Of a DNA stretch of 64,000 nt, positions 7,442-24,314 are shown one piece after another. The position numbers were made by a program, and so were the translations under genes. Source of the stretch: Catalinimonas alkaloidigena (GTDB lineage Bacteria; Bacteroidota; Bacteroidia; Cytophagales; Flexibacteraceae); NCBI RefSeq assembly GCF_900100765.1, contig NZ_FNFO01000002.1:806001-870000 (forward strand), read 5' to 3'. The notes beneath the pieces are model-generated. The model saw only the letters and a program-made list of their open reading frames with translations, searched no databases and was not told where the DNA came from. Each line of letters opens with the position of its first letter. Position 1 is the first letter of the stretch.

Positions 7442-7476
7442 AAAACGCCGTGGGTTGCTCAGGCCCACGGCGTTTT
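7442..7476. terminator. Bidirectional terminator split-copied by the element
   Basis: A 13-bp perfect stem: AAAACGCCGTGGG at 7442-7454 pairs with CCCACGGCGTTTT at 7464-7476 around a 9-nt loop, with A-rich and T-rich flanks. In the uninterrupted chromosome it would have served both the epimerase gene and the convergent subtilase gene now at 24.3 kb. Confidence 0.88.
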
Positions 7477-7480
7477 GCTT
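7450..7480 (+). repeat. attL: 31-bp direct repeat, left element boundary
   Basis: The 31 bp starting GTGGGTTGCTC and ending GTTTTGCTT recur exactly at 24284-24314. The repeat covers the loop and right arm of the terminator hairpin. Sequence outside the pair is GC-rich host DNA and sequence between is AT-rich, so these are the attachment-site copies. Confidence 0.9.
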
Positions 7481-7649: not shown

Positions 7650-8879
7650 ATGGCAAGTGTCAAAGTAGTGCGTAAAGCCAACAAAGAAGATAAGTTTGGC
7701 AAGGCTCCCCTATACCTGAGAATTATCAAGGATCGTAAAGCAAAGTTCGTAGCCCTTAGTATTAGGGTGCTGGAAGAGGAATGGGATGAGGAAACCCAAC
7801 AGGTAGTTAAGATCAAAGGGTTAAAGGGCAGGGAGATGCGATTAAAAGTACAACAGTACAATAAAGCCATTGCCAAGAAAAGGTCAGAAGCAGAAGATGT
7901 AGCCCTGGATCTGGAAACTACTTCTAAGTATGTAGCACCTCAGAAGATCAAAGAAACCATCATGGGGAAGTCTTCAGAAAGTTTCCTAAAGTATGCTCAT
8001 AGATACCTTGCCTCATTAGAAAAATCCAAAAAAATGGGGACATTAGGTAAAGGTAAATCAGTGATATCGAAGCTAGAAATATACTTAGGCAGTAGGGATA
8101 TTGTATTCACAGATATAGATTATACTTTTCTGAAAAGCTACGAAACCTATCTGCGGGAAAGTCTTGGCAACTCTGTTAACACTATTCACAACAATTTCAA
8201 CGTAATCAGGAAACTGATTAATGAAGCAATAGCGGAGGGCCATTTGCCTTACGAGAAAAATCCTTTCTTGCGTTTTAAGATGAGGTTGGAAAAGACTACC
8301 AAGAACTACCTATCAGAAGAAGAACTAGATGCTATCGAAGCCTTACCCTTGAAGCCAGCCAGTAAAAGATATCAGCATCGAAGCATATACATCTTCTGCT
8401 GTTGGGCAGGAGGATTACGAATATCTGATGTAATTCAGCTACAATGGTTGAACTATAAAGAGGGAAAGATTACACTTACCATGTACAAAACGAACACTGT
8501 GGTATCAATAATGTTGCCTAAACGTGCCATTGAAATTATCGAGGAGTATGATCAACCAGATAAGAAGCCAACTGACTACATATTTCCCTTTTTACGGAAT
8601 GATCGTGATTATTCAGATCCTAAAGCTTTATTTAAAGCCATCTCATCGATTTCTTCTTATGCTAACAAAGATTTAAAGCGCATAGGGGAGGAGGCAGGTA
8701 TACCTCACGTATTACACTTTCATACCAGTAGACACACATTTGCTACCAGAGCATTACGTAAAGGCATGCGAATAGAGTACGTCTCGAAGCTATTGGGCCA
8801 TACTTCAGTGAAAACCACTCAGATCTATGCGAAAGTTGTGAATGAGGAGTTAGACAAAGCGATGGAGGCTTTTAACTGA
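7650..8879 (+). CDS. Tyrosine recombinase/integrase
   Basis: 409 residues. An N-terminal Arm-type DNA-binding domain typical of Bacteroidota integrases (about 1-95) and a SAM-like core-binding domain (about 105-215) precede the catalytic domain. Catalytic residues visible are R257 (GGLRISD), K280, H358 and R361 (HFHTSRHTFAT), H384 (LLGH) and Y393 (TQIYAKV). The full set argues for an active enzyme. It lies 170 bp inside attL and reads into the element, so it is the likely agent of integration and excision. Whether it also acts on the dispersed 41-bp palindromes is open. Confidence 0.95.
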   Translation: MASVKVVRKANKEDKFGKAPLYLRIIKDRKAKFVALSIRVLEEEWDEETQQVVKIKGLKGREMRLKVQQYNKAIAKKRSEAEDVALDLETTSKYVAPQKIKETIMGKSSESFLKYAHRYLASLEKSKKMGTLGKGKSVISKLEIYLGSRDIVFTDIDYTFLKSYETYLRESLGNSVNTIHNNFNVIRKLINEAIAEGHLPYEKNPFLRFKMRLEKTTKNYLSEEELDAIEALPLKPASKRYQHRSIYIFCCWAGGLRISDVIQLQWLNYKEGKITLTMYKTNTVVSIMLPKRAIEIIEEYDQPDKKPTDYIFPFLRNDRDYSDPKALFKAISSISSYANKDLKRIGEEAGIPHVLHFHTSRHTFATRALRKGMRIEYVSKLLGHTSVKTTQIYAKVVNEELDKAMEAFN

Positions 8880-8892: not shown

Positions 8893-9771
8893 ATGTTTAC
8901 TTTGGGTGAACTAACCAAAGCAATAGATAGAAGCATTGAATTGTTCTATTCTAGGTATGATGCGGTCAAACATAACAATGATGAATTTAGAGAAGTTGCT
9001 GATGAGAACGGAAAAGTTATAGCGTATTCTTTCGATCACCATGACGCTGAGCATGGTTTATATAGAAGAGAATTTCTACTTGAAAAAGACATTAGCAAAG
9101 CATCTCACGATTTAATCTTAGAAGCAATCTCCTTAATTGACAAGGATTTAAAGCAGCTTAACATAGAAAATCGAATACCTTATCTTAACCATGAGAAAGG
9201 AATTCTTCTGGGTTATCTGACTGACGATGGCAACCAAGACCTCTACAAAAAATATCCGTCAATTAAAACATATATTCAGGAATTATTACAGTGTATTGAA
9301 GATAAAATACAAGTAAATTATACTGTTAGCGTTTTCCCTGTTAAGAAGGTAAGACGGAAGAAAGGAGCCAAGCTTAGTCTCGATTCAGACTATATAGGCG
9401 ATAAATACTTTAATTATAGCGATAAGATTATAGATCTGCATAAGCAATTAACAAATCGAGGGTTACTTGCTAATAATACAAGAGAGGATTTTGTTCGCCT
9501 ATTTACAAATAGACCTTTAGAAAATACTATGCATTGGAAGGGGAGTCCATCTGAGCTAGCAGTTCTATTTTCTACCCTGCACAATAAGTTTAATGTAATG
9601 CACGGTTATACTAACTGGAAAGCAATCGAAAATGCGTTTATATATGATAGGATAAATTCTGAATTAAGAACACTTGCAGGAAGTGCTTCAGACGCACTAA
9701 AGAATTCGTTCCTTGCCCTTCTAAGCGAAATATTTTCAGGGATGGAAAAAAAGAAAAGCAAGCATAGTTGA
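8893..9771 (+). CDS. RteC-like protein of the element core
   Basis: 292 residues, starting 13 bp after the integrase stop, so probably cotranscribed. The C-terminal part (about 180-265) reads NRGLLANNTREDFVRLF, then MHWKGSPSELAVLF and MHGYTNWKAIENAF. This resembles the RteC/CTn-regulator type found beside Bacteroidota integrases, where such proteins influence element excision. The N-terminal part is helical and charged, with no motif I can name. Placement between integrase and ATPase supports a role in element maintenance or excision control. The family assignment is from memory of the pattern only. A terminator follows. Confidence 0.5.
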   Translation: MFTLGELTKAIDRSIELFYSRYDAVKHNNDEFREVADENGKVIAYSFDHHDAEHGLYRREFLLEKDISKASHDLILEAISLIDKDLKQLNIENRIPYLNHEKGILLGYLTDDGNQDLYKKYPSIKTYIQELLQCIEDKIQVNYTVSVFPVKKVRRKKGAKLSLDSDYIGDKYFNYSDKIIDLHKQLTNRGLLANNTREDFVRLFTNRPLENTMHWKGSPSELAVLFSTLHNKFNVMHGYTNWKAIENAFIYDRINSELRTLAGSASDALKNSFLALLSEIFSGMEKKKSKHS

Positions 9772-10131: not shown

Positions 10132-10214
10132 AAATTGGTGTATAGCTTTTCTTCAAATGGAGCCTAGAGCTATTGTTGAATAAATGCAATTTATTGAATC
10201 TTAAACAATTTGTG

Positions 10215-11345
10215 ATGTTAGAACATGAAGAGCCTGATGAAAGAAATCAGGACAATACGCCTAAAGAATCACGAGGTGATCCACCTCTTGCTTTACCTTT
10301 AGATGAGATGCTAGAATCTTACAAAGATTTGGAAGACATCTTGTTTGAATGGTCAGGCATCAATAAAGGTGGGTATGGGTACGTGATAGGCAGCAGCAAA
10401 AGTGGTAAAACTATTTTCTGTGAATGCTTGGGTATGGCAATTGCTAGTGGTCAAACTCAGTTCTTAAAAAAGCCATTAGCGAAAAAGGAAGAATCACCGG
10501 AAAAGGTGTTATTCGTCTCCTGTGAGGAGTTTCCAAGTGCCAGAATCAAACGTAACGAAAAGCAAGCTGCCTATTTTGATAAATTGGCTGGATCAGCAGA
10601 ATGGCGGAAAAACTATCATGTAGTAACAGAAGCCTTTCCGCGATTCATTCACTCCTCTGCAAACTGGAAGACGTTGGTGAAGCTGTTGCTTGAACAAAAG
10701 CCAGATATAGTTTTCATCGACTCACTTACACGATTGACAAATGGACAGATCGAGGATAGTAAGACAGCCAATGCTTTGATGATGAAACTACGAGAGTTAA
10801 GCTATTTAGCGAAATGTACTCTTGTTGTGATTCACCATACTCCAAAACAAATGGGTAAGCCTCTCACGATTGACAGTGTTGCAGGTAGCAGGGTACTTAT
10901 TCAGGAAGCTGATTTTTGCCTTGGTATCAACAGAACATCATCCGGTACAAGATATGTTAAGGAGATTGTTTTTCGATACAAGCAAGAAGAAGTAGATAAA
11001 GTTACTCTCTTTGCCATCAACGATACGCTAATTATTGAGGCGCAAGGAGAAAAAGCTGAATGGGAAGTGCTTGGTGAAAATGATGGAAGGTCAGACCCTA
11101 GTAACTTGATGGCAGTTTATAAGTCTATTTGTGAGAAACCTGAAGGTAAAACAACCAAAGAACTCATGGATGAATTTGTAAAAACTGGCATCATCGGGAG
11201 ATCTACATTGTATCCATACCTGAAACAGTTGACTGAGGAAATGAAGATTATCAAAGAAGATAAAACCTATAAAAAGTTAGATCTTTTTGGTGATCAGAAT
11301 AACGTAGAAGAGGGAGATTCTTTAGATGAGCCAACAGAAGAATAA
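10215..11345 (+). CDS. RepA-like AAA_25 family ATPase
   Basis: 376 residues from the ATG at 10215; an upstream TTG at 10173 is in frame but unlikely. The RecA-fold ATPase has Walker A GSSKSGKT (59-66) and Walker B IVFIDS (165-170), with a sensor-like VIHHTPKQ after it. This matches the hexameric RepA/AAA_25 helicase-loader type found in plasmids and integrative elements. The C-terminal 90 residues (SNLMAVYKSICEKPEGKTTKELMDEF..) look like a winged helix. It probably opens or replicates the excised element at the structured segment upstream. The stop codon abuts the first cassette-border repeat. Confidence 0.72.
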   Translation: MLEHEEPDERNQDNTPKESRGDPPLALPLDEMLESYKDLEDILFEWSGINKGGYGYVIGSSKSGKTIFCECLGMAIASGQTQFLKKPLAKKEESPEKVLFVSCEEFPSARIKRNEKQAAYFDKLAGSAEWRKNYHVVTEAFPRFIHSSANWKTLVKLLLEQKPDIVFIDSLTRLTNGQIEDSKTANALMMKLRELSYLAKCTLVVIHHTPKQMGKPLTIDSVAGSRVLIQEADFCLGINRTSSGTRYVKEIVFRYKQEEVDKVTLFAINDTLIIEAQGEKAEWEVLGENDGRSDPSNLMAVYKSICEKPEGKTTKELMDEFVKTGIIGRSTLYPYLKQLTEEMKIIKEDKTYKKLDLFGDQNNVEEGDSLDEPTEE

Positions 11346-11385
11346 TCTATCCAATCCAAAGCACTATATGTTGGATTTGACAGAC
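11346..11385 (+). repeat. Cassette-border palindrome copy 1 (divergent)
   Basis: TCTATCCAATCCAA at the left and TTGGATTTGACAGA at the right form an imperfect inverted repeat of the same length as the clear copies (40 nt), but with several base changes. It touches the stop codon of the ATPase gene and is followed 3 bp later by another copy. Confidence 0.5.
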
Positions 11386-11430: not shown

Positions 11431-11434
11431 AATT

Positions 11435-11467: not shown

Positions 11468-11481
11468 GCTTATCCTGTCAT

Positions 11482-13503
11482 TTACTTTCTGAATTCGTTG
11501 ATCCGCTTTTCCATCCCGCTTTCATCAACGAACTTCCAAAATGTCCACCCATTTTCAGTGGTATGTTCAGGAGCACCTAAATCTATTTTTACAGCATTAG
11601 CAGCTGCACTTGGGCTCTCGTAAAGATCACCTTTATAAAAGATCTTTGCAGTTGATGGATTGAAAACAGCGCTAGCCTTGTTTGACTTATAAGAGCAGTA
11701 TACATTGATATTAGCTGTTTCTTCAAATCTAACCTCCTCATAAAATTCTTCTTTAATCGAATCCTTTGGAACAATCACATGCTTGTTCACAATGTCAAAT
11801 ATTGCACTAGCTCTTAGTTCTACAAAGAAATTGAATTCCTTATCATACTCACCAGTCAGCAATTCACTAGTAATTAAGTGACTTTCTAATGATCGCCCTA
11901 TATTGGGGTTAACTAGTTGGATCGTTGATAGATATTCTGATGGAGGTTGATCACTTATTCTGATATTCTGGATTTTTGGAACAAGTGTTCTGTTAGCTAC
12001 ACAATCTATTAAATCTCTATCTATTTCATTGGTAAGAGACTTGTTAAGATAACTCTTTGGAAAAATGTGGTGATCCTCGAGAGTTGAATTAAGTGAAAGT
12101 TTTGCATCATTATTCCAGTTCAGCAACCCTTTTTTCTCATAGCTTATGATATTCAGTAAACCCTTATAAACTGCATTTGCTTTTTTATCAAATGAATATA
12201 TATCTTCTACTGATAAGGTTTGAATTTTTGTTAACTTATTAAAGAAGCTTAGGTAAGTTATTTTTTTATCATTGGCAATAATAGTCAACGCGTTAGAATC
12301 TTCTATGATACGTTCGTTAGATGAACCTGAGTATCTCAATGAAAAAATTGAATTCCAATACCAAAAATCAATAAATCGCTTTTGCTTTGAACTCATAAAA
12401 TGATAATCTCCTCCTATTTCATTAACAAAGTTTATTAAGGGAATCATCATATTGTCATAGGGAATCCAATCCTGAGATATGATATAGTGGTTATCATATA
12501 AATAATCTAATGTCCTCTTGTAACTCAAGCATATTTTATCCCACCACTCCTTAAAATCCTCTGCATTAAGAGAGGTGAGAATATAATTTCTGTTTATCTC
12601 TTTAGGAGAACTTTTTCTATAAGCAATGGCACGAACAATTATTTCCGGAATTAGATTGTAGTTTTGATGCTTTTGCTCAAACTCTTTTATCTTTTCTTTT
12701 AGGTTGAAATTGCCAGTATAGAGCTTTGCAGCTAGTATATCAATGAAATTTAGCTGAACCCCTCGCGTGTTACTTCTTTCAAAAAACACTACAAACTTCT
12801 CAAGATTCATATCCAGTAAATAGAAAGAAAGAAGCTTCTCAGACTTAAATAAGTCGGCAATCTTTTTTTTTAAATTCCTAAATTTTTTGAATTCTCCTTT
12901 AAAGTCAAACCCCGCTGTACTACTATAATTTTTGTAATAAGTAGAAGTGAAGAAAAATTTCTCCTTTACATCGTCTTCATCATAATCATTTTGCTCAATC
13001 TCCCAAACATCAGATAAGCGAATTGAAAGTCTTTCTGAACTTTGTTCCCCTGTAATCTCTTCAAGCAGTTCTTCTAGTTTCGCACTTTCAAAAGATGGGC
13101 TTTCTATCTCATCTTCACTTTTTGCTATGAACCAAATTTCATCTGTTCCCTTTAATGCTCTATATATTGAAGTTGATCTTTGTTGACCATCTAGTATCAA
13201 TCTGAAATTTCCCCCTGTCTTATTGATTTTTTCTATTTCAGACTTCGTTACAGTCTTAATTTCTAATGAAGGCCTCTTCCTGCCTTTCGTTATCTTTCTT
13301 CGGTTATCTATCTCCCTTACTGCAATATCAAATGAAGGTATTCCATAAATAATTGCTCCTATAAATATATCTTTGATCAAGGAGTCGAATAAATCGTATG
13401 TTTTTGATACTTCCCATACAAAATCTCTTTGAAATTCTGGTAAAAATATCTTCTTAGCATCTATATCTTCAATAAGGTTCTTAATTGATTGTGTTTGCTC
13501 CAT
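11482..13503 (-). CDS. GmrSD-type DUF262/HNH nuclease with RAMA-like C-terminus
   Basis: 673 residues from the internal ATG at 13503, preferred because MEQTQSIKNLIEDI starts the domain as in homologues; an ATG at 13554 adds 17 residues. The N-terminal DUF262 (GmrS-like, ParB/Srx fold) has FQRDFVW (24-30) and DGQQRS (105-110), the latter associated with NTP hydrolysis. The C-terminal half has an HNH/DUF1524-like motif (DHHIFPKSYL near 478, then NRTLVP). The last ~60 residues (LYESPSAAANAV, NGWTFWKF) resemble a RAMA/DUF4357 domain proposed to sense modified DNA. The family includes type IV restriction enzymes against glucosylated phage DNA. It sits alone between two border repeats. Confidence 0.85.
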   Translation of the reverse strand: MEQTQSIKNLIEDIDAKKIFLPEFQRDFVWEVSKTYDLFDSLIKDIFIGAIIYGIPSFDIAVREIDNRRKITKGRKRPSLEIKTVTKSEIEKINKTGGNFRLILDGQQRSTSIYRALKGTDEIWFIAKSEDEIESPSFESAKLEELLEEITGEQSSERLSIRLSDVWEIEQNDYDEDDVKEKFFFTSTYYKNYSSTAGFDFKGEFKKFRNLKKKIADLFKSEKLLSFYLLDMNLEKFVVFFERSNTRGVQLNFIDILAAKLYTGNFNLKEKIKEFEQKHQNYNLIPEIIVRAIAYRKSSPKEINRNYILTSLNAEDFKEWWDKICLSYKRTLDYLYDNHYIISQDWIPYDNMMIPLINFVNEIGGDYHFMSSKQKRFIDFWYWNSIFSLRYSGSSNERIIEDSNALTIIANDKKITYLSFFNKLTKIQTLSVEDIYSFDKKANAVYKGLLNIISYEKKGLLNWNNDAKLSLNSTLEDHHIFPKSYLNKSLTNEIDRDLIDCVANRTLVPKIQNIRISDQPPSEYLSTIQLVNPNIGRSLESHLITSELLTGEYDKEFNFFVELRASAIFDIVNKHVIVPKDSIKEEFYEEVRFEETANINVYCSYKSNKASAVFNPSTAKIFYKGDLYESPSAAANAVKIDLGAPEHTTENGWTFWKFVDESGMEKRINEFRK

Positions 13504-13562
13504 TAGATATTTGGTGGTTACGATCAGAAAAGTAGGTATTATTAATATTTTCACAAAACGAT

Positions 13563-13605
13563 GTATCTATCTAGTACAAATTATAATAGCCTAGACTAAA
13601 TAGAC
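13563..13605 (+). repeat. Cassette-border palindrome copy 3
   Basis: TCTATCTAGTACAA at the left and TAGACTAAATAGAC at the right, with ATAATAGCC in the centre as in the copy at 16122. It lies about 60 bp upstream of the preferred start of the DUF262 gene. Confidence 0.8.
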
Positions 13606-14706: not shown

Positions 14707-15747
14707 TTATTTTTTCTTTGGTCTAGGAAGACCTTTTACGATTCTATCTTTTATTGTATTCAAGCTGAATGTTCCTGATACAAAAAAGTAATTAGGATCT
14801 TTACTACCTGCACTGACTATGTTGTAACCAATATTAAACGCTTGTGCAAATGCAAATCGCGCCTCACTATTAAAGCTACCATTGCTATTTCTATCAAATC
14901 TGTCAAACTTTTTACTAAGAAAACTTAAAACAATACCAAAATTGTTTTTAGGAATATATACGTCAGAAATATTTACATAATAGTAAGGAGTTAAGGCGAA
15001 GGGTAATTTGGACCCTAAGCTAGATGAAATCCAGAACTGTGGCAAAGAAATCGAAAGTCTATAATTTCTAGTAGGGTCAATTGGAGAAAAATAGCCATCA
15101 TTAGTACCGTTAGAGGCTACATTATCATCTATATAAAAGGTGTTACTTCTGTTTTGATAAGAAGTTAAGTTGTCAGTAGCTATGGAATGTTGATAGCTTG
15201 CTGAGAGGGAAATTACAAATTTTGTGCTACGAAAAATAGATAAATTTCCTCTTATACCAGGGCTAAACCTATTTGTTTTACTATTGGAAAAAGAATCATT
15301 GATTGTATCGTAATAATTGAAATTCTGGTACTCACCAAATGCTGAAACTGAATATGTGAAATAAAATCCGGCCTTTGCAGATGGATTAATTAGAGAGTCA
15401 AACCCCCATGAATATCCCAGTTCAACTACTGGGGAGTAATTTGTTTTTTTGTCAAAAATTAAGGTTGACTTAGAATTATTTACCGCATTGGCTTTAAAAA
15501 ATAGTATCTGAGACTTAGCCATAGTATTTATTGTATCTCCTGAATTTGCATCAAGAACATAATACATCTTCCTATAGAACTGATGTATAGGCGCAGTAAA
15601 TCCAACATTTTTTGATGACAATTCAGGTTGAATTGTAGTGGTCGGCACACCAAAGATGAAATTACCTTTTGAATCAGTTATAACATCCTGAGCCATAAGG
15701 TTTGAAAAAAGAAAGAATATTAAAAAGTAAGAAAATAAATATTTCAT
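14707..15747 (-). CDS. Secreted outer-membrane beta-barrel-like protein
   Basis: 346 residues. A clear signal peptide (MKYLFSYFLIFFLFSNLMAQ) is followed by alternating hydrophobic/polar strands with many aromatic residues (VVELGYSWGF, AGFYFTYSVSAFGEY, VISLSASYQHS, LTPYYYVNISDVYI, NYFFVSGTFSLN). These suggest a barrel of the outer membrane. I cannot name a family. It is the only gene between decayed border repeats at 14454 and 15859, so it seems to be a cassette of its own. A surface barrel carried with nucleases could affect phage adsorption, but that is inference. Confidence 0.65.
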   Translation of the reverse strand: MKYLFSYFLIFFLFSNLMAQDVITDSKGNFIFGVPTTTIQPELSSKNVGFTAPIHQFYRKMYYVLDANSGDTINTMAKSQILFFKANAVNNSKSTLIFDKKTNYSPVVELGYSWGFDSLINPSAKAGFYFTYSVSAFGEYQNFNYYDTINDSFSNSKTNRFSPGIRGNLSIFRSTKFVISLSASYQHSIATDNLTSYQNRSNTFYIDDNVASNGTNDGYFSPIDPTRNYRLSISLPQFWISSSLGSKLPFALTPYYYVNISDVYIPKNNFGIVLSFLSKKFDRFDRNSNGSFNSEARFAFAQAFNIGYNIVSAGSKDPNYFFVSGTFSLNTIKDRIVKGLPRPKKK

Positions 15748-16104: not shown

Positions 16105-16121
16105 ATGAGTAAAACTATATG

Positions 16122-16161
16122 GCTATCTAGTCCATGCTGTAGTAGCCTGGACTGAATAGAC
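16122..16161 (+). repeat. Cassette-border palindrome copy 4
   Basis: GCTATCTAGTCCA at the left, TGGACTGAATAGAC at the right, and GTAGTAGCC in the centre. It lies 13 bp beyond the stop codon of the 231-residue nuclease gene. Confidence 0.85.
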
Positions 16162-16174
16162 TTTTCATAGGTCA

Positions 16175-16870
16175 TCATTCAATCCATTTCTTGATATCGC
16201 TCACAATTTTTGTTGTATCATCCCTTACCTCTTTTCCCGTATACCTAAGCACCTTAAAACCAAGCTCTTGTAGCTTTCTATCAATATTCCTATCTCTCAG
16301 TGCTTGATCTTCTGTTCTCTCGTGATAGGTATGGCCATCAGTATACACGCATAGCTTCGTATCACGCTTCTCTATATAGAAGTCAACGATAGTCATTACC
16401 TCTTTGAAGTTATTGTGTTTGTCTCTATATGTCTTTCCAGCTACTGAAATGCTTTTACCATACCAATTCAAGGGGTACTGTGGCTGGAAGCTTATGTATG
16501 ACTTTAAGAGTTCCAAATAAAGTTGTCTTTCAAGTGGGCTTTGCAATACAAACAGACATTGTTTACAGCTAGGAGTTAACTTATAGGCACAAGTTGAACA
16601 AAGGGAATCATCTTTGTAATGTTCATCTACTACTCGTGCCTGGTCTTCTGTAATCCTTAATACTTCTGCCGTACTAGTTGATTCTAGTATCGTATCTATC
16701 TCATTCCTTAACTTCAAGAGATCATCCCTACCACAAATAATGGTCTTATCCCATTGCTGCCCTTTCTCATGTAGTTGGAATAAATACCTAGTAAATTCTT
16801 CCTTCTCACTAGATAGCCCTAGTGAATCGTTCATCTTTATTTTTTTAATGTTTACAGGTATTATTCCCAT
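16175..16870 (-). CDS. Vsr/DUF559-like PD-(D/E)XK nuclease with Cys4 cluster
   Basis: 231 residues. A charged N-terminus is followed by a likely zinc knuckle, C91-x2-C94 and C102-x2-C105. The C-terminal Vsr/DUF559-type fold then reads E114 in SPLERQLYLELL, D163 (IVDFYI), YTDGHTYH (177-183), RDRNIDRKLQELGF and VLRYTGKEV. The usual IExDG Glu is replaced (VYTDG), as in nuclease tails attached to some helicases. It lies 96 bp downstream of another predicted nuclease gene on the same strand, and the two share one pair of border repeats, suggesting a two-gene system acting on DNA. Confidence 0.7.
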   Translation of the reverse strand: MGIIPVNIKKIKMNDSLGLSSEKEEFTRYLFQLHEKGQQWDKTIICGRDDLLKLRNEIDTILESTSTAEVLRITEDQARVVDEHYKDDSLCSTCAYKLTPSCKQCLFVLQSPLERQLYLELLKSYISFQPQYPLNWYGKSISVAGKTYRDKHNNFKEVMTIVDFYIEKRDTKLCVYTDGHTYHERTEDQALRDRNIDRKLQELGFKVLRYTGKEVRDDTTKIVSDIKKWIE

Positions 16871-16966
16871 ATCTCTTTAGTAAATCCTGACTATATGTAC
16901 TGATGGATTTTAATAGGGAGATAGCCTGAAAATACATGTGACAACCTCTCCATCTATATGATGTTA

Positions 16967-17836
16967 TTAATCAACTCGAATCCCGAATTTTAACAGCATC
17001 TTAGGAAGATGATCTTCCAGATTTTCAATGTGCCTATCATCGAGTTCAATAAGGTTGAGGTTGTTAGCAGCATAGACAGCTTGTTTTACTTTCTTACGCT
17101 CCTGATACTTTGCATCATTTTCTAAACCCCAATACTCGATGTAAAAAGGATTCTTGTTTACTTGATTAGGGACATAGAAATCAGAATATACATCTTCCTC
17201 CAGGGGCAACCTTCTTTCATAAGCATGAACGATCCCATAGTCATATAAGGCATTATCAATAATTACTTCAGCTCTAGAGCGTACTAGATGTCCATCCTTA
17301 GCGCGTAGATTGGCGGGAAACTTTTGCCTGAAGTCATTCAGCTCAGTACCTTGCTCAGTAGGCAGTTGTTCAGCATTACCTACAGAACGAAGGAGTACTT
17401 TGTGTGATAGTATATCAGTAGGCCACATCACGAAGGTTCCTCCTGACTGATGTTCTATTTGTACGCCTCTTACTTTCTTGCCTAGATCTGTGATTTCCCA
17501 ACCCTTCACTCCTTTTGCAATCCAGCCAATCTCAGCAAATACTAAGTTCATTCGCTGAGAGGATAAATCGAATTCCTTACCCACAGAAGTAGCATTGATC
17601 AGATCCTGCCTTGCAGTATTACTAAACTGTAAAGGATTGAAGTCAGGAGGCCATACAATGTATTGCCCATATTTATCACTGATAACCACCTCTCCACCAC
17701 ATTCTTCTCCTTTGCTGGTTAATACCCATTGATCTCCTTGACGTGAGATGAAGTTCTGATCAAAAAGTGTGTTGAATAATTCTCGACTTACAGTATCAAG
17801 TGTTTTGGCTAATGCTGAGGTGCTTATCTTTCTCAT
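16967..17836 (-). CDS. Tandem winged-helix protein with PD-(D/E)XK nuclease tail
   Basis: 289 residues. Two related ~60-residue N-terminal repeats (about 5-65 and 82-142), each with an SALAKTLD/TSVGKEFD-type helix-turn-helix start and a VWPPDF/MWPTDI end, look like duplicated winged-helix modules. The C-terminal nuclease (about 185-289) has E190 (RSRAEVIIDNAL), D219 (YSDFYVP), E234 (FYIEYWG) and a Lys-rich KKVKQAVY, the E-D-ExxW pattern of nuclease tails. It is the first gene of a two-gene module with the Vsr-like protein. The duplicated DNA-binding front may recognise the target; that is inference. Confidence 0.7.
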   Translation of the reverse strand: MRKISTSALAKTLDTVSRELFNTLFDQNFISRQGDQWVLTSKGEECGGEVVISDKYGQYIVWPPDFNPLQFSNTARQDLINATSVGKEFDLSSQRMNLVFAEIGWIAKGVKGWEITDLGKKVRGVQIEHQSGGTFVMWPTDILSHKVLLRSVGNAEQLPTEQGTELNDFRQKFPANLRAKDGHLVRSRAEVIIDNALYDYGIVHAYERRLPLEEDVYSDFYVPNQVNKNPFYIEYWGLENDAKYQERKKVKQAVYAANNLNLIELDDRHIENLEDHLPKMLLKFGIRVD

Positions 17837-17960
17837 AGTGATTATAGAGGTGATTCATAACAAGTCGCACAAGCTATGAAACAACGTCTACAAATCATCA
17901 GTGAAGTAATGTATTTGATAAAATCACCTAACCTCTACTAATGTAAATTCTAAGAGGTAT

Positions 17961-18001
17961 GTCTATCTAGTCCAAACTACTATGAATTAGACTCGATAGA
18001 C
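17961..18001 (+). repeat. Cassette-border palindrome copy 5
   Basis: GTCTATCTAGTCCAA at the left and AGACTCGATAGAC at the right, 41 nt long, 125 bp upstream of the winged-helix nuclease start. The remainder of 17837-18209 is AT-rich with no gene. Confidence 0.88.
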
Positions 18002-18209
18002 ACTATTAATAACGAATTGTTAGTAAGTGAGAGAATGGATAGTTATACTTTTACATAAAAAAACTTTAATAAAAGAAGCAACTTATAGACTATCAATGTT
18101 ATATATATTAAACAAATAATTAATTAAAAGAAGATATATCATTAATATATATAATATTAATCTCAAAGGATCTTTCATGTACTAAAACTCATCTCTCATA
18201 TGACGCTAT

Positions 18210-19049
18210 TTACAGTGTAATTATACGCTCCTTTGATATTGACTTAGATTTCATGCTAGAAAAGTTTGAGATATACTTTTCTAAGTTTTGTTTGTTTCCT
18301 GAATAACAAAATCCTCGACTATAATTAAACTCTCGATCATTAGATCGAATCCACTCAAAAGCCAGATCGTTATTTATAACTGTAAAGTCACTATCTGATA
18401 CTTTTTTCTGACTTGGCACATATACTAATGTACTTACTTTATGTAACGTGTTTTCGTAGTATTTGTCATGAAATTCGAGCATACTAATTAAACTATTCTT
18501 ATTATAAGAAGCATAGTCTTTTGATACAATGAAGATCCTAACAACTTCACCTCCTCTGTTCAAGATGTTTCTTTGAGGTTCAATAAATTCATTCATATAC
18601 TTACGATAAGGACATTTCTCACCCCAGACCTCGATATCTTTAGAATTGTTTATATTGTGAGTTGCCCAATATCTAACTGGAGTATTTTCTCTTACCAATG
18701 CATTTAAAACTTCAATTGTATAATCATCTAATTCATCAGGACTAAGTTCTATTCTGCCTGAAGTAAGCTCCTCTAGTGCCCGATTTATAGAGATGGCTTT
18801 TTTTATCCAAACAAGGTTTCTACATCTTACCTTATTAAACCTATTTGAAAGAAATTGCATAAATTGAGCCTTCGTAGCAATCTCAATTTGTCTGGTTTCT
18901 AGCCAAAGAAAAAAGGAACTTGATAGTAATGTAAAGTAAATAGTAGTAACCCCTACAAAAACTCTATTAAAAAAAAACAAACATAAAATAGAATAAAACG
19001 CTCCTAGTACTAAAGACACAATTACAAACCCATGTTTCTTTAGATCCAT
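18210..19049 (-). CDS. Two-TM membrane protein with unknown cytoplasmic domain
   Basis: 279 residues from the ATG at 19049; an in-frame ATG at 19121 would prepend a sequence unlike a normal N-terminus. Two hydrophobic helices (about 7-27 and 32-50) are followed by a ~225-residue soluble domain (NALVRENTPVRYWATHN, PYRKYMNEFIEPQRNIL, GGEVVRIFIVS, DLAFEWIRSND). I do not recognise the fold; it is loosely like PLD-type signalling domains but lacks HKD motifs. Two TM helices plus a soluble domain is the layout of many abortive-infection membrane effectors. It shares its cassette with the TIR-domain gene. Confidence 0.55.
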   Translation of the reverse strand: MDLKKHGFVIVSLVLGAFYSILCLFFFNRVFVGVTTIYFTLLSSSFFLWLETRQIEIATKAQFMQFLSNRFNKVRCRNLVWIKKAISINRALEELTSGRIELSPDELDDYTIEVLNALVRENTPVRYWATHNINNSKDIEVWGEKCPYRKYMNEFIEPQRNILNRGGEVVRIFIVSKDYASYNKNSLISMLEFHDKYYENTLHKVSTLVYVPSQKKVSDSDFTVINNDLAFEWIRSNDREFNYSRGFCYSGNKQNLEKYISNFSSMKSKSISKERIITL

Positions 19050-19227
19050 TATATTATAGTGTGCTAAGTAGACAAATACTATATAAACCTTATAACAGAA
19101 GCAATGTAAAAAAACTTTCATTCAATGCACCTTGGTTGTATAATATTTTTTTCATTTAAAGTTTAGTGAAATTTGTAATAATATTTACTGTTTAAATCTC
19201 GTAAGCGCAATTACTTACCACCTAAAG

Positions 19228-19237
19228 CCCCCCCCCC
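19228..19237 (+). repeat. Poly(C)10 tract
   Basis: Ten consecutive C in otherwise AT-rich DNA, in the gap between the two-TM gene (minus) and the 120-residue gene (plus), about 180 bp and 110 bp from their starts. It is a candidate slippage tract. Confidence 0.5.
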
Positions 19238-19347
19238 TTAACTATTCAACTTCCCCAACCGCCCCTTTTAAACAAAGCATCATCACCCCACAGCTATACT
19301 TAGCAGAAAGGTTCTGCCTTCGATCTAACAGATTAAAGTGTATAGCT

Positions 19348-19710
19348 ATGTTAACAGTAGTAGATTACAAACCTTGCAAAAACAAGGATGGGAAGAAATT
19401 CTTTATCCTGAAGTTGGAAGGGCATATTGAAATGGTGAAGTCCAAACAGTCAGGTAGGTACTATGCCACAAGAATCAAGACCACAATGGCCTGCACATTC
19501 AATGAGAAGAGTTGTAAGGAGATGCTTGGGAAGGAGATCCCAGGTAGGATCATAAAGGAGCAGGTAGAGCCTTATACGTACGTAATACCTGATACTAAGC
19601 GGGAGATCACTTTAGACTTCAGGTATTCGTATCAGCCTTCTTATCTGCCAGCAGGAGGTAGCTTGATAGCCATGCAGAGAGAGCTATTGAAGCTGAATTA
19701 TAATAACTAA
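19348..19710 (+). CDS. Small protein of unknown function (120 aa)
   Basis: 120 residues, rich in Lys and Tyr, without signal peptide or TM helix (VVDYKPCKNKDGKKFFILKL, then YYATRIKTTMACTF, then REITLDFRYSY). It is the only plus-strand gene in the cassette half of the element and is followed by its own terminator, so it is independently transcribed. No family recognised. Possible roles include an inhibitor, an immunity-like partner of its neighbours or a DNA-binding accessory; the sequence does not decide. Confidence 0.55.
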   Translation: MLTVVDYKPCKNKDGKKFFILKLEGHIEMVKSKQSGRYYATRIKTTMACTFNEKSCKEMLGKEIPGRIIKEQVEPYTYVIPDTKREITLDFRYSYQPSYLPAGGSLIAMQRELLKLNYNN

Positions 19711-19714
19711 CAGA

Positions 19715-19744
19715 AAAGGCAGTTCTAACAATGGAGCTGCCTTT
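19715..19744. terminator. Hairpin terminator
   Basis: AAAGGCAGTT (19715-19724) pairs with AGCTGCCTTT (19735-19744). It lies between the 120-residue gene and the convergent TIR gene. Confidence 0.65.
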
Positions 19745-19781
19745 AATCAAACATATTTTAATGTATCAGTGAACTATAAAA

Positions 19782-20906
19782 TTAATCGAATTCTCTTTTA
19801 ATAGTTGCAACGACATCACCAAATATTTCTTTTATGTTATTCTTGCTAAATCTTAACTGTTGAACACCATTAATATTAGAAAACTCTTCTGTGTCATTTT
19901 CCATTGCAACAATCGCTCTATTAAACCCTAGCTTTCCCTGAAATAATCCAATCTCATGGATTACATTCTGCCTTGCTCTCATTTTACCATCTTTTGTTTC
20001 ATCTTCTCCAGTCATTACCATAATCGCAAAAGTAGACTTGGTAGACATATCTTCTAATATATCTCTTATATGATGCCCAGCACGAGCACCAGATTCAAAG
20101 GCTTCAACCTTAATATTATGCAAATCACTAAGATGATCCTTCAATTCCCTCCATTGCTTATTTCCTCCATGGCCTATAAACACAACTATTTTGTCTTTTG
20201 CTATATCCTTTGATATTTCAACATGTGATTTAGACACCAATGATTCCACTTCTGAAAAAATTGATCTAACTAGATGTGCGAACGTTGAACGAACTATCAC
20301 CACTAGCTCAAATCTTGAATGGGAATCTAACCACAATGATACTTTAGAAGTAGATACGTTTATTGAAAATTCATCACACTCCTTATCATAGTAAGATAGA
20401 AAATCATTCAAATTTCCAAATTCCCATCTTTCGTTATTTCGTTTGGTCTTTAATGTTGAGTATTGTCCATCTTTAAAATGCTCTTCCAATAGAGATTTAA
20501 TGTCTCTTCTATCAATAAATACTCCTTTAAAGGTTTTGCCTTTCTGCAAACTATTACTAGGAGCATCCTCTTTCTCCTCTACAAAAATACTTTCATCAAG
20601 CAACTCTATAACACTGTCAATTAATTCTTTGTGTCCCTTAATTTCAATTTTAGTTTTGTGATTACTAAAATAATTGTATGCAAATGCGACACCTTTCCAG
20701 TAGATGTTTGCACCTATATATTTATATTTGAGATGAATTTTCGACTTAAGTTCCTCTATTGTATCAAATGTATATTCATCATTTTCTACTTCGATAGAAT
20801 AAGAAGATGAATATTTTTCACCTGATAGCTGCGAGATATGATCAATTAGGTTGTAAAAAGAGGTCAGTTCTAGCTTTTTCCTGTTATATGTTCTTGATAG
20901 TTTCAT
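19782..20906 (-). CDS. TIR-type (CAP12/Pycsar-like) effector with duplicated N-terminal domain
   Basis: 374 residues. The C-terminal ~135 residues (238-374) match the bacterial TIR-like nucleotide-binding type used as NAD-degrading effector: IVVFIGHGG (240-248), ARAGHHIRDIL, FAIMVMTGEDE, RARQNVIHEIGLFQGKLG with E318 as likely catalytic Glu, and FSNINGVQ. The N-terminus seems to hold two copies of a ~100-residue unit (about 10-110 and 127-228), each ending in a similar amphipathic helix. No cyclase or CD-NTase gene is nearby, so it is not a recognisable Pycsar or CBASS operon; the N-terminal repeat pair may itself be the sensor. It probably triggers cell arrest on phage infection. Confidence 0.75.
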   Translation of the reverse strand: MKLSRTYNRKKLELTSFYNLIDHISQLSGEKYSSSYSIEVENDEYTFDTIEELKSKIHLKYKYIGANIYWKGVAFAYNYFSNHKTKIEIKGHKELIDSVIELLDESIFVEEKEDAPSNSLQKGKTFKGVFIDRRDIKSLLEEHFKDGQYSTLKTKRNNERWEFGNLNDFLSYYDKECDEFSINVSTSKVSLWLDSHSRFELVVIVRSTFAHLVRSIFSEVESLVSKSHVEISKDIAKDKIVVFIGHGGNKQWRELKDHLSDLHNIKVEAFESGARAGHHIRDILEDMSTKSTFAIMVMTGEDETKDGKMRARQNVIHEIGLFQGKLGFNRAIVAMENDTEEFSNINGVQQLRFSKNNIKEIFGDVVATIKREFD

Positions 20907-21017
20907 AAGATCCAGTTCCGATTCAGTCTGATATATTTATTTTTGGTGAATATAAAGGCAAAGGTATTTATATTTGATTTGCTTTGATTCCCCATGTTCA
21001 GCACTATACAATTTGAT

Positions 21018-21058
21018 GTCTATCTAGTCCAAACCACAATAGATTGTATTAGATGGAC
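21018..21058 (+). repeat. Cassette-border palindrome copy 6
   Basis: GTCTATCTAGTCCAA at the left and TATTAGATGGAC at the right, 41 nt long, located between the TIR gene start and the stop of the 658-residue nuclease gene. Confidence 0.88.
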
Positions 21059-21109
21059 AATAAAATGAGACTTATATCATTTCAATAACTCACAATAATT
21101 ACTTCTGAT

Positions 21110-23086
21110 TTAATCTTTATATTGGATAGCTTCAGAGTAAATATCGCAATCCATAAAGTCAAAAGATAACTTGTTATTAGTATACTCAAACAGCCCTCTT
21201 AACTCATCAATAGCAGGAGGCGAGAAAAAGTACGACTTCATGTTTTTAGAGAAATCTTCTTCGCTTTTGTAATGTACCTTCTCAGATACTACTTTAATCA
21301 AAAAATCATCTCTTTCTGATTTCGAGGCAATAAAAGTACTTAATTTGCCAGAATTAAAATAAGAAGACAGCATAACATAATCAACAATAGCTACATTATC
21401 AAATATCCTTCCACTAAAATTAGGAAAATTAGTAACAACTATTGTAAGTATCTCTTTGCGCTCAATATCTCCAATATCTGATTTAAACTTATCAATATTT
21501 TTAATAACAAAGCTAGATTTTCTATTAATCTGTACAGCTCCATCTCTCAATCTTTTTAATGCATTATGCTCATCACGAGGGCCTAAGGGAAACTTAATAC
21601 ATTTTACTTCCCCAAAAACACATATATGCTTCAGATTAACTACAAAATCTATTTCTTCAAAACTTCCATCTTCTAACTTAAAAATTGCCTTGTCAGGGAT
21701 AGAATAATCATATCCTTTTTCATCCAACGCGTCTTTCAATTTATTTATAATTTTCTTCTCAAATAATTTGCCTCGAGTATCTAAATCCACACCCCCATCT
21801 TCTAACCATCTATCAATAAGCACAATATTATTTGAGTAAACTATGGGCAAAATTGGGCAAAGTAAGTCATCATTAACTTCAACAAGAGGATACTCCCAAA
21901 AATTAATTCTAGACTGGGATTCGTTTTTCACTAAATCAATAAACTCCGAAACTTGGACTTCAGTATATGTGGTTCTACTTATAAGATATTTTATTAGTGC
22001 TTTTCTTTTTATTTTGTATGGAAGCTTCTGGAAATCTTTTATAGCAAAAACCGAGTCGTCAACTATTTTGATATTCATCGCTTTTCTCAACAGAGATTGA
22101 AGAACATCAAATAGAGCATTTAAATCATACAAAGTTAAATTCGTGAAATTTGGTAAAGGATAGTTTTCTAAGAAGCTGTAGAAAGCACCTAAGAAGTTAA
22201 CATTGGATACATCAAAATATGTATCTTCAGCATCAATTCCATCTGATAATTCATAGTTAATGTAACCCTCATTTACTTCGATACTTGAAATGTGAGATTT
22301 CCTTTTATTGAGCAAGGATTGTTCCAATATTCGTTTACCTAGTAACTCGTTATTTTGGATGAGTGCCTTAGTTTTTAAATCAAATGCTAATGCATACTGC
22401 TGCATCCTAAAAAATCCAATATTATCCAATAGCAATTCTTCTCTATTTAGAGAACTAAATTGTATTTTTCTGCCACTCAGACTACTATATCCATCCCTCC
22501 AAACACATCTATCATATTCATTTTTTAATACAAAATAAAAAGTTGACACAACTTGCATCCTGAAAATATCACCTATTGTCTCTATATCTTCTCTAGATTC
22601 ACTTTCATTTATTTCCTCATCTTTGAAGTAGCGAGCATAATTTAACAAAATACCTACGCCATCAAGGTTGCTTTCCAAAGCTAATCCAGTGTTTATTTTT
22701 CCTATACTTGGATCAATTGATTCACTCTTATGCTTAAAATAGTCTTGAAGATTGATAATGTCTAAATTTGAAGTACTTTCTGATATATTTTTGGAAACGA
22801 TAAGTAGCTCTCTATTGAACGACGCGATGCTATAATTGAATAAGTCATCTATTGATATGCTTGATCTAAAAATATGTATTTTTAGAAAATTGAAAACCTT
22901 CTTAAAAGTTTCATGAAGTGCTTCTGCGACATTCAATGTCTCCAGCATTTTTAAACTTTCATCGTTAAATAATCTATCTTTAGCCAATTCTTTTATAATA
23001 GACTCAAATGCTTTCTTCTTATCAAAGTTATCGCTAAATGGATTGGCTTCCTTTTTTTTCAATAAAACTTTTCTTATTGGATTCAT
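21110..23086 (-). CDS. Large protein with C-terminal PD-(D/E)XK nuclease domain
   Basis: 658 residues. About 430 N-terminal residues are helical, acidic and unrecognised. A nuclease core follows: RGKLFEKKIINKL supplies the first acidic residue, EEIDFVV has Asp near 477, and FGEVKC has the ExK pair near 492-494. This is the archetypal D-ExK arrangement of restriction-type nucleases; a Gln/Arg-rich helix (GAVQINRKSSF) follows, as expected. The gene lies 46 bp after a DUF2726-like nuclease gene on the same strand within one pair of border repeats, so the two form a probable two-component nuclease system that I do not recognise. Confidence 0.65.
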   Translation of the reverse strand: MNPIRKVLLKKKEANPFSDNFDKKKAFESIIKELAKDRLFNDESLKMLETLNVAEALHETFKKVFNFLKIHIFRSSISIDDLFNYSIASFNRELLIVSKNISESTSNLDIINLQDYFKHKSESIDPSIGKINTGLALESNLDGVGILLNYARYFKDEEINESESREDIETIGDIFRMQVVSTFYFVLKNEYDRCVWRDGYSSLSGRKIQFSSLNREELLLDNIGFFRMQQYALAFDLKTKALIQNNELLGKRILEQSLLNKRKSHISSIEVNEGYINYELSDGIDAEDTYFDVSNVNFLGAFYSFLENYPLPNFTNLTLYDLNALFDVLQSLLRKAMNIKIVDDSVFAIKDFQKLPYKIKRKALIKYLISRTTYTEVQVSEFIDLVKNESQSRINFWEYPLVEVNDDLLCPILPIVYSNNIVLIDRWLEDGGVDLDTRGKLFEKKIINKLKDALDEKGYDYSIPDKAIFKLEDGSFEEIDFVVNLKHICVFGEVKCIKFPLGPRDEHNALKRLRDGAVQINRKSSFVIKNIDKFKSDIGDIERKEILTIVVTNFPNFSGRIFDNVAIVDYVMLSSYFNSGKLSTFIASKSERDDFLIKVVSEKVHYKSEEDFSKNMKSYFFSPPAIDELRGLFEYTNNKLSFDFMDCDIYSEAIQYKD

Positions 23087-23132
23087 AGTATTAGTTTATA
23101 CACTCACACAATTATTATATACAATATCAAAA

Positions 23133-24005
23133 TTAATTTACCGTATCTCTAATTAAGATTGAGAAGTCCTTCTCTGAAATAATTTTCCCTCTAGATCTTA
23201 TCCTGTATAACTTATGTCCAGCCAATCTAATTATATTATCTTTCATCTTGTCATTCTCAATCTGCTTGTCTGAATCATGAAAAATACTATCAAGCTCAAA
23301 AAAGTATTTAGGCTTATAAAACTCCTCTTGATCTAATACAACACAATCAATCAATGACCTGAAGAAGAAACTTCTCTCTTTTTGTTGTAGTAGCCCTTGA
23401 ATTGCTTCAAAGTTTATAATCGAACTCAGTGCAATATTTGGAAAAACAACATACATTGGGAATGCTTCCCTCAACGCTCTAAAGAATAAGTATTCTTGTT
23501 CAGATTTGAATAAACTTATTGTGTGATCTATTTCTGATTCTCCTTGTGTCTCTGTTAGATGAATGTAATCTGATTGCGAGTGTTTCACATTAACAGGCTG
23601 AGTTCTTTTAAACTCTTCTATCACCTGTTTACAAAAGAAATGACTGGGTAAGTTCTTTGCGTATTGATAAGCTTCTTTTAATCTTTCTGCTTCATAGTAT
23701 TCAGTAGCTAATTTAACTACCAACTTCTCAAAATCGTCTTTATCTAATTTGAAGTCAAAGCCAGGTGTCATATGTAGCAAATAAAATTGCTCTAAGTAGT
23801 GAACATGATTAGATTCACTTGAAAAGGATTTACCTAATATCAATTCCTTTATAAAAACATCTTCTAAGATTCTATTTGCGATAGGATCTTCCCTAATCTG
23901 CTTGTAGATCTTATTATTTTTGAATAGCTCTATAACTTCACGCCATAACTTTGCCTGAATTAATTTAAAGAGTTCTTCCCTATCGTATCTTGATATAACA
24001 TTCAT
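23133..24005 (-). CDS. DUF2726-like PD-(D/E)XK nuclease
   Basis: 290 residues. The N-terminal half is helical (about 1-135; TEYYEAERLKEAYQYA is reminiscent of a TPR). The C-terminal half resembles DUF2726: E171 (KSEQEYLFFRAL), VVFPNIALSSIINF, D220 (SLIDCVVLD), E237 (FFELDSIFH) and K253/K255 (NDKMKDNII). These form a complete E-D-ExD nuclease core of Vsr/DUF559 type. It is the promoter-proximal gene of a two-gene unit with the 658-residue nuclease; both carry intact-looking active sites, which is unusual and suggests either two cleavage activities or a heteromeric complex. Confidence 0.68.
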   Translation of the reverse strand: MNVISRYDREELFKLIQAKLWREVIELFKNNKIYKQIREDPIANRILEDVFIKELILGKSFSSESNHVHYLEQFYLLHMTPGFDFKLDKDDFEKLVVKLATEYYEAERLKEAYQYAKNLPSHFFCKQVIEEFKRTQPVNVKHSQSDYIHLTETQGESEIDHTISLFKSEQEYLFFRALREAFPMYVVFPNIALSSIINFEAIQGLLQQKERSFFFRSLIDCVVLDQEEFYKPKYFFELDSIFHDSDKQIENDKMKDNIIRLAGHKLYRIRSRGKIISEKDFSILIRDTVN

Positions 24006-24109
24006 TAGCTGAGTATAAAGAGGTTAAAAGTAGATCAGCCTGTTAATGTAATAGATGCCTAATTGCAAATCAACAGATTCATGAAATCTAATTAAATAAT
24101 ACAAGTGAA

Positions 24110-24150
24110 GTCTATCTAGTCCAAGCTACAACAGCCTTTACTAGATGGAC
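24110..24150 (+). repeat. Cassette-border palindrome copy 7
   Basis: GTCTATCTAGTCCAAG at the left and CTTTACTAGATGGAC at the right, 41 nt, 105 bp upstream of the DUF2726-like gene and the last copy before the right end of the element. Confidence 0.88.
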
Positions 24151-24207
24151 TCATGGTGTGTTCAGCTTTGAATGATGAAGGGGAAGGTACAAAAGTAAAT
24201 ATCAAAA

Positions 24208-24227
24208 TGTTGTACCTATGTTGTACC
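24208..24227 (+). promoter_or_regulatory. Right arm-type sites, two TGTTGTACC repeats
   Basis: TGTTGTACC at 24208-24216 and 24219-24227, identical to three copies near attL. A related inverted copy (GGTACAAAA) lies at 24185. Confidence 0.55.
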
Positions 24228-24237
24228 TACAAACAAA

Positions 24238-24270
24238 AATCCCTTGCAAGTAATTGACTTACAAGGGATT
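24238..24270. terminator. Strong hairpin next to attR
   Basis: AATCCCTTG (24238-24246) pairs with CAAGGGATT (24262-24270), with inner AAGT/ACTT pairing. T-rich DNA follows on neither side, so it is either an insulating terminator or a recombination-site feature. Confidence 0.5.
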
Positions 24271-24283
24271 ACTAATCAAGCTT

Positions 24284-24314
24284 GTGGGTTGCTCAGGCCC
24301 ACGGCGTTTTGCTT
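24284..24314 (+). repeat. attR: 31-bp direct repeat, right element boundary
   Basis: Exact copy of 7450-7480. Only the GTGGG/CCCAC part of the original terminator stem remains here, so the subtilase gene (stop 27 bp away) has lost most of its hairpin on this side. Confidence 0.9.

What the first reader, a model, noticed from the sequence alone, without database searches (positions are those of the whole stretch)
21110..24005. Two-gene unit in which both proteins carry complete PD-(D/E)XK nuclease cores
A 658-residue protein (unknown 430-residue front, D-ExK core at the end) and a DUF2726-like 290-residue protein are 46 bp apart, bounded by border repeats. No methylase, helicase or ATPase accompanies them, so self/non-self discrimination must be built into the unknown regions. 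I do not know a described defence system with this composition.
Basis: partly seen in the sequence, partly recalled or inferred. Interest (0 to 1): 0.65.

Follow-up and report, generated by a model that had tools for sequence, protein, structure and literature searches.

The report
Two nuclease genes in defence island
Two neighbouring bacterial genes each encode a likely DNA-cutting enzyme inside a mobile element that carries other anti-virus-type genes, but no relatives that were examined occur as this pair, so it is probably a stand-alone defence nuclease with a neighbour rather than a new two-part system.

Summary
The genes are real: P2 (290 aa, 23133-24005 -) then P1 (658 aa, 21110-23086 -), 46 bp apart. 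P1 has a PD-(D/E)XK core; P2 is a DUF2726 protein with E-L-D-S..H, not ExK. They are the outermost unit of a 16.9-kb AT-rich integrative element (7450-24314; 31-bp direct repeats, tyrosine recombinase) with other defence-like cargo (CAP12/Pycsar-type TIR, DUF262, PDC-S69). The 'border repeats' are two of six same-orientation 41-bp imperfect palindromes separating five cargo units; they are not special to this pair.

No P2-type protein lies in 12 P1-type loci examined and no P1-type protein in 15 P2-type loci. P1 relatives keep no constant partner and several lie beside defence genes (type I RM, short Argonaute/TIR, once third in a PDC-M65 operon).

Best reading: P1 is a stand-alone defence nuclease, organised like Shedu but not matching its profiles, whose front senses or restrains; P2 is a separate DUF2726 nuclease sharing its unit. 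A dedicated two-nuclease system is not supported, though not excluded. No function was tested. The most novel open point is the six-site array as an integron-like cassette system.

The parts
21110..23086 (-). P1, 658 aa: ~430-residue front of unknown kind, PD-(D/E)XK (NERD-like) core, ~90-residue tail
   Evidence: alignment A1; NERD PF08378 13.9 bits, under the 22.1 cut-off; model
21380..21772 (-). P1 nuclease core, residues 439-569
   Evidence: invariant residues; fold matches over about 424-586
23133..24005 (-). P2, 290 aa, DUF2726 nuclease-like protein with its own front
   Evidence: alignment A4
23193..23504 (-). P2 DUF2726 domain, residues 168-271
   Evidence: PF10881, 1.3e-7
24110..24150 (+). 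S5, 41-bp imperfect palindrome, outer border of the P2-P1 unit
21018..21058 (+). S4, 41-bp imperfect palindrome, inner border of the P2-P1 unit
17961..18001 (+). S3 site
16121..16161 (+). S2 site
13565..13605 (+). S1 site
11345..11385 (+). S0, the most divergent site, between two convergent gene ends (a further half-site at 11416-11430)
7450..7480 (.). left 31-bp direct repeat of the element (attachment-like)
   Evidence: identical to 24284-24314
24284..24314 (.). right 31-bp direct repeat of the element
7650..8879 (+). tyrosine recombinase (Arm-DNA-bind_5, Phage_int_SAM_5, Phage_integrase)
8893..9771 (+). platform gene, 292 aa, no family match
   Evidence: 24% identical protein in the sister element
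10173..11345 (+). AAA_25 ATPase of the platform (RepA-like)
   Evidence: 35% identical protein in the sister element
11482..13554 (-). cargo unit S0-S1: GmrSD_N (DUF262) protein with a sub-cut-off RAMA match
14707..15747 (-). cargo unit S1-S2: 346-aa protein, no Pfam or PADLOC match
16175..17836 (-). cargo unit S2-S3: DUF559 protein (16175-16870) and PDC-S69 protein (16967-17836)
18210..20906 (-). cargo unit S3-S4: 303-aa protein, a 120-aa ORF on + (19348-19710), CAP12/Pycsar-type TIR protein (19782-20906)

Best explanation
P1 is a stand-alone defence nuclease that rides in a mobile element loaded with defence-type genes. Its front ~430 residues would sense a phage or plasmid cue, or hold the enzyme in check; the C-terminal PD-(D/E)XK core then cuts DNA. 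P2, just upstream in the same border-to-border unit, is a DUF2726 nuclease of another family (E-L-D-S..H..K) that is probably co-transcribed and inherited with P1 but is not an obligatory partner. Shown here: the genes, the conserved core residues of both, the element and its cargo, the lack of co-occurrence in the loci examined, and defence genes next to several P1 relatives. Inferred: that either cuts DNA, that the front senses anything, that they share a transcript, that they protect the host.
For: Core residues invariant over 7 diverse P1-type proteins and over 11 P2-type proteins. Restriction-endonuclease-fold matches of the P1 core, e.g. Can2, McrC, FokI. P1 relatives change neighbours: one gene, near identical at DNA level, follows an HNH protein annotated as phosphorothioated DNA-binding restriction endonuclease in a Klebsiella plasmid and follows type I RM genes in the 2 E. 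coli genomes opened of the 3 that carry it, with a SIR2-family gene further on in both. In G575 the relative lies near dGTPase, short-pAgo and TIR-type genes. In Flavobacterium profundi (37% identity over the full length) it overlaps the end of PDC-M65B. No P2-type protein in 12 of 12 P1-type loci, no P1-type protein in 15 of 15 P2-type loci.
Against: No activity was tested and no background rate of defence neighbours was computed. P1 relatives without recognised defence neighbours: Cytobacillus, Lysinibacillus and Rhizobium plasmids, G682 (contig ends just after the gene) and G600. In F. profundi the relative is tied to two other genes, so it may need partners, although the two other strong PDC-M65B loci opened lack it. 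P1 and P2 are 46 bp apart with no border site between them, which favours joint expression and may mean a real, rare partnership. Close relatives of P1 are scarce: of 6 aligned relatives only one is above 25% identity, so absence of pairs says little about the closest subfamily.
Confidence: 0.58

Rival explanations
1. P2 and P1 form a genuine two-nuclease defence system, rare and recently assembled, in which one protein senses or nicks and the other finishes.
For: Same strand, 46-bp gap, one unit between S4 and S5 with no site between them, both cores conserved.
Against: 0 of 12 and 0 of 15 loci show the pair; the best P2 relative found (46%, Spirosoma plasmid) has no P1-type neighbour; the best P1 relative has other partners.
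Confidence: 0.22
2. P1 and P2 were separate cargo cassettes whose dividing border site was lost; they now travel together by accident and act independently. (Compatible with the best explanation; it differs in the origin of the pair.)
For: Border sites separate all the other units; no pairing elsewhere.
Against: No trace of a border site in the gap: best 15-bp arm matches there have 6 and 7 mismatches. Two other units also hold more than one gene.
Confidence: 0.3
3. P1 serves the element itself (stability, exclusion of rival elements) or DNA repair rather than anti-phage defence.
For: P1 and several relatives lie on an integrative element or plasmids; its fold is also common in repair and mobile-element proteins.
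Against: Several relatives lie beside defence genes.
Confidence: 0.2
4. About the borders only: the 41-bp palindromes are operators of a shared regulator, not cassette borders.
For: S3, S4 and S5 lie about 105-125 bp upstream of the first gene of a unit, S1 next to one; the sites are near-palindromic; a sister element with a 75% identical recombinase lacks them.
Against: S0 lies between two convergent gene ends with no sizeable gene start nearby; S2 is 374 bp from the next sizeable start.
Confidence: 0.35

Closest known systems
Shedu (SduA)
   Same: Single protein with an N-terminal regulatory part (recalled) and a PD-(D/E)XK core; P1's core aligns to 8ps4_A at Z 7.7, rmsd 4.6, 138 residues
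   Different: No Shedu-type family listed for P1 in Pfam or PADLOC; the front cannot be compared at this model quality; Z under 8 may mean the common fold only
NERD-domain nucleases (PF08378)
   Same: P1 and 4 of 6 relatives scanned give weak NERD matches over the core; NERD is listed for the Mokosh type I and Nhi-like defence systems (PMC10952713, passage)
   Different: P1 scores 13.9 bits, under the 22.1 cut-off; long front of unknown kind
DUF2726 (PF10881) proteins
   Same: P2 passes the cut-off (31.8 vs 24.7 bits); a 2013 survey calls DUF2726 a REase-fold DNase found fused to an AbiJ-type N-terminal domain (PMC3710099, passages)
   Different: P2 has a ~160-residue front shared with other P2-type proteins; whether it equals any AbiJ-type domain was not tested
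PDC-M65 (PADLOC candidate)
   Same: The closest P1 relative is the third, overlapping gene behind PDC-M65A and B in F. profundi
   Different: No M65B match in the window's genome; the two other strong M65B loci opened lack a P1-type gene
Integron cassette arrays / pdif modules
   Same: Several same-orientation recombination-like sites divide cargo units in an element with a tyrosine recombinase
   Different: No integron integrase over the cut-off in the genome; likeness to dif or attC was judged only by recall; the sister element lacks the sites

Membership tests
Shedu (SduA) | Shedu nuclease-domain profile match (DUF4263 in Pfam; name recalled) | tested here: not met
   Pfam scan at E<=1 lists only NERD for P1; PADLOC lists nothing
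Shedu (SduA) | single protein, PD-(D/E)XK core plus N-terminal regulatory domains | tested here: inconclusive
   core fold supported; the front is mostly modelled under pLDDT 50
NERD (PF08378) | score over the Pfam cut-off | tested here: not met
   13.9 bits vs 22.1; four relatives 17.4, 14.0, 14.8, 18.7, also under
DUF2726 (PF10881) | score over the Pfam cut-off | tested here: met
   31.8 bits vs 24.7 for P2
PD-(D/E)XK superfamily (P1) | fold and conserved acidic residues | tested here: met
   Foldseek alone gave nothing at E <= 0.001
PD-(D/E)XK superfamily (P2) | canonical ExK motif | tested here: not met
   invariant E237, D239, S240, H243, K255
PD-(D/E)XK superfamily (P2) | fold | tested here: inconclusive
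   P2 model unusable, mean pLDDT 38.7; rests on the DUF2726 match and the literature
PDC-M65 | M65B partner present in the genome | tested here: not met
   no match in G000
PDC-M65 | M65A partner present in the genome | not tested
   only window cargo genes were scanned with PADLOC
Integron | integron integrase (TIGR02249) over its cut-off | tested here: not met
   58.3 bits vs 265 for the element's recombinase; 0 of 21 matches in the genome over the cut-off, best 102.6
Integron | sites recombine and cassettes excise | not testable with these tools
   needs reads or bench work
Two-gene system P2+P1 | recurrent co-occurrence | tested here: not met
   0 of 12 and 0 of 15 loci
Any defence system | protection against phage | not testable with these tools
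   no assay available

The most novel reading that the evidence does not exclude
The element is an integron-like defence platform of a separate kind: six same-orientation 41-bp imperfect palindromes (S0-S5), found in its genome only in this element, are recombination sites that let one- to few-gene defence cassettes, P2-P1 being one, be gained, lost and shuffled without an integron integrase.
Probability: 0.25. Interest if true: 0.7.

Novelty: new member of a known kind. Interest (0 to 1): 0.33.

Why it matters
P1 belongs to a family without a PADLOC or NCBIfam match or an above-cut-off Pfam match (for the members scanned) whose ~650-730-residue members were found in Bacteroidota-type genomes, Proteobacteria and Bacilli, several beside defence genes; testing one would tell whether the family is a single-gene defence. 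If the site array is a cassette system, it would show a way to shuffle defence genes outside integrons.

Tried and rejected
Two-component system: not the leading reading, because the pair was not seen elsewhere. Named system: no PADLOC, NCBIfam or Pfam model covers the pair; PHROGs gives only a 20-bit match for P1 and a chance-level one for P2. Phage origin: no match for P1 or P2 in phage records or viral contigs (pattern-based and limited to relatives that share the patterns). PDB by sequence: none for P1, one chance-level designed protein for P2. Structure: the P1 model (2 sequences) serves only for the core; the P2 model was not searched.

Limits of the samples. In one search, 36 of 395 genomes matched the P1 profile, but 30 of the 38 rows (29 genomes) start at profile position 621 or later, the SEC-C end of two members, and were set aside. 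Of the 7 genomes left I dropped G702, whose protein did not match the profile at E <= 0.01. G395 is a TPR protein with a weak match (26.5 bits) that PADLOC likens to viperin-associated NERD; it is among the 12 loci but is a doubtful relative. L006 (Klebsiella), L093 and L094 (E. coli) hold nearly one gene, so the 12 loci are at most 10 independent genes. In one search a third matching genome (G101) was a short, chance-level match and was not opened. Weak P2 rows G142 and G070 were not opened. Opened: 5 of 6 P1 plasmid records, 4 of 14 P2 plasmid records, 2 of 3 E. coli genomes. Vibrio hits H25/H26 were not opened. In the Aliarcobacter plasmid (L036) the P2-type gene appears broken (longest open piece 152 aa). 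P2 was not searched in the genomes of the class sample.

Border sites. The element's recombinase as their reader is weakened by the sister element L103. The 14-mer genome search gave 5 matches, all in this element, but its reversed control gave 8, so the claim of restriction to the element rests on the 40-bp pattern (5 forward, controls 0; S0 itself is too divergent to be found that way). 0 of 295 other phylum genomes matched and no viral contig (exact pattern only). A Bacteroidota promoter consensus (recalled) found nothing in the P2-P1 gap but also missed the starts of four of the five units, so it decides nothing. The platform protein at 8893-9771 matched in 2 of 198 class genomes, its own genome and one weak hit, and in no plasmid record, so other elements of this kind could not be compared.

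Literature. Searches gave no description of the pair; 'PDC-M65' is in no held paper. Papers were seen only as listings with abstract starts, except passages in PMC3710099, PMC10853773 and PMC10952713.

Full report
What is there. The window lies in a 7.1-Mb genome (G000:C2:806001-870000). A low-GC stretch (2-kb bins of 31-38% from 8 to 24 kb, against 48-63% elsewhere) runs from about 7450 to 24314 and is flanked by identical 31-bp direct repeats. It starts with a tyrosine recombinase, a 292-aa protein without family match and an AAA_25 ATPase, followed by five cargo units whose larger genes are on the minus strand except a 120-aa ORF. The pair under study is the outermost unit: P2 (23133-24005), then after 46 bp P1 (21110-23086). 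Each has a single match in the genome.

The proteins. P1 has a ~430-residue front with no family match and a core at about 435-570. Over seven aligned proteins the invariant positions are P400, G439, E443, E478, D480, E493, Q519, R522 and D569; the residue two after E493 is K in six and R in one. The AlphaFold2 model from two sequences is poor (mean pLDDT 46.2), with block means of 57-86 over 431-580. Foldseek gives no match at E <= 0.001; VIA-align 2 aligns the core to restriction-endonuclease folds: Upx Z 10.7, Can2 10.4, McrC 10.0, FokI 8.5, Shedu SduA 7.7. These support the fold, not a function. P2 is a DUF2726 protein (31.8 bits, cut-off 24.7). Among its invariant residues over 11 aligned sequences are E171, D220, E237, D239, S240, H243, D252 and K255, so it lacks a canonical ExK. 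Its own single-sequence model is not usable.

Border repeats. The repeats that bound the pair are two of six 41-bp sites, S0 to S5, all in one orientation: a 15-bp arm, an 11-bp middle and a more variable inverted arm. With a matrix from all six, the twelve best positions in the window are these sites read on both strands (22.1 to 57.1); the next is 5.3. Left out one at a time, each still scores 24.2 to 50.4, with 4 to 10 of 127,920 positions higher, no more than the other five sites on both strands would give, and the best other forward position at -0.7 to 8.3. In the genome the 40-bp pattern occurs only in this element, and in 0 of 295 other phylum genomes. S0 lies between convergent gene ends, which speaks against an operator role for that copy; S3 to S5 lie about 105-125 bp upstream of a first gene, which fits one. 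A sister element in the same genome (L103, 6068-19173) has a 75% identical recombinase, a 35% identical AAA ATPase and a 24% identical second gene in the same order, its own 23-nt flanking repeat with one mismatch, and none of these sites. So the sites are not simply what this recombinase needs. Their reader is unknown.

Do the two families go together? In the phylum samples P1 was matched at full length in its own genome and one other of 395, plus one chance-level row, and P2 in 14 of 390 including its own, two of them weak; only the window's genome has both. With profiles, 12 P1-type loci held no P2-type protein and 15 P2-type loci held no P1-type protein, within flanks of about 5 to 9 kb, less where a contig ended (L033, L075). 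The 12 include one doubtful relative (L079) and three copies of nearly one gene (L006, L093, L094). The best P2 relative found, 46% identical in a Spirosoma plasmid, has no P1-type neighbour; two IncC-type plasmid relatives of P2 directly follow a 241-aa hypothetical gene, so P2 may have another partner there. The best P1 relative, 37% identical in Flavobacterium profundi, overlaps the end of PDC-M65B behind PDC-M65A. Two other strong PDC-M65B loci had no P1-type gene.

Defence context. The same element carries a CAP12/Pycsar-type TIR protein, a GmrSD_N (DUF262) protein, and a PDC-S69 protein followed by a DUF559 protein. P1 relatives lie downstream of type I RM genes in two E. coli genomes (HsdM frameshifted in one), with a SIR2-family gene further on in both and a NACHT-domain gene annotated in one; downstream of an HNH nuclease annotated as phosphorothioated DNA-binding in a Klebsiella plasmid; and near a dGTPase, a short pAgo and a TIR partner on the other strand in G575. 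The Alteromonas plasmid relative is followed by an AbiEii-annotated gene. Relatives in Cytobacillus, Lysinibacillus and Rhizobium plasmids, G682 and G600 show no recognised defence neighbours. This is an association by inspection; no background rate was computed.

How it most likely works. P1 is best seen as a stand-alone nuclease organised like Shedu: a front that senses or restrains and a PD-(D/E)XK core that cuts. P2 probably adds a second, independent nuclease. Fold and residues of P1's core are shown; sensing, cutting, co-transcription and protection are inferred. Membership of Shedu and NERD was tested by profile and not met; membership of DUF2726 was met.

Verdict. The pair as a system is not supported, though a rare recent partnership is not excluded. 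P1 is an uncatalogued member of an ordinary kind, the single-protein defence nuclease. The more unusual feature is the array of six sites, which may make the element a cassette platform; that remains open.

Noticed in passing
window 11345-24150: Six same-orientation 41-bp imperfect palindromes divide the element into five cargo units, integron-like, with no integron integrase over the cut-off in the genome.
   Followed up: partly
L103 6068-19173 (G000:C2, about 305-318 kb): Sister element in the same genome with a 75% identical recombinase and the same platform order, other cargo, another flanking repeat and none of the 41-bp sites.
   Followed up: partly
window 19348-19710 and L103 8442-8801: A ~120-aa protein starting MLTVVD occurs in both elements (seen by eye in the ORF lists, not aligned); no Pfam match for the window copy.
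   Followed up: no
window 16175-17836: A PDC-S69 protein (325 bits) directly followed by a DUF559 protein: another nuclease-like pair in a nearby unit.
   Followed up: no
L023 4636-9964 (Flavobacterium profundi): A P1-type nuclease gene overlaps the end of PDC-M65B and follows PDC-M65A, as a possible third gene of that candidate system.
   Followed up: partly
L077 5330-9817: 1495-aa protein with a P1-like first ~600 residues and a ~890-residue extension; no Pfam or PADLOC match.
   Followed up: no
window 11518-11592 and 13702-13958: Short repeats of 77-78% link the 3' end of the DUF262 gene with the next unit, perhaps a decayed second copy; may be chance.
   Followed up: no
L076 6808-14239: P1-type gene near a dGTPase and a short pAgo/TIR pair in one defence-like cluster.
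   Followed up: partly
L037 3833-5411 and L038 3819-5411: In two IncC-type plasmids a 241-aa hypothetical gene ends 13-27 bp before the P2-type DUF2726 gene, a possible different pair.
   Followed up: no
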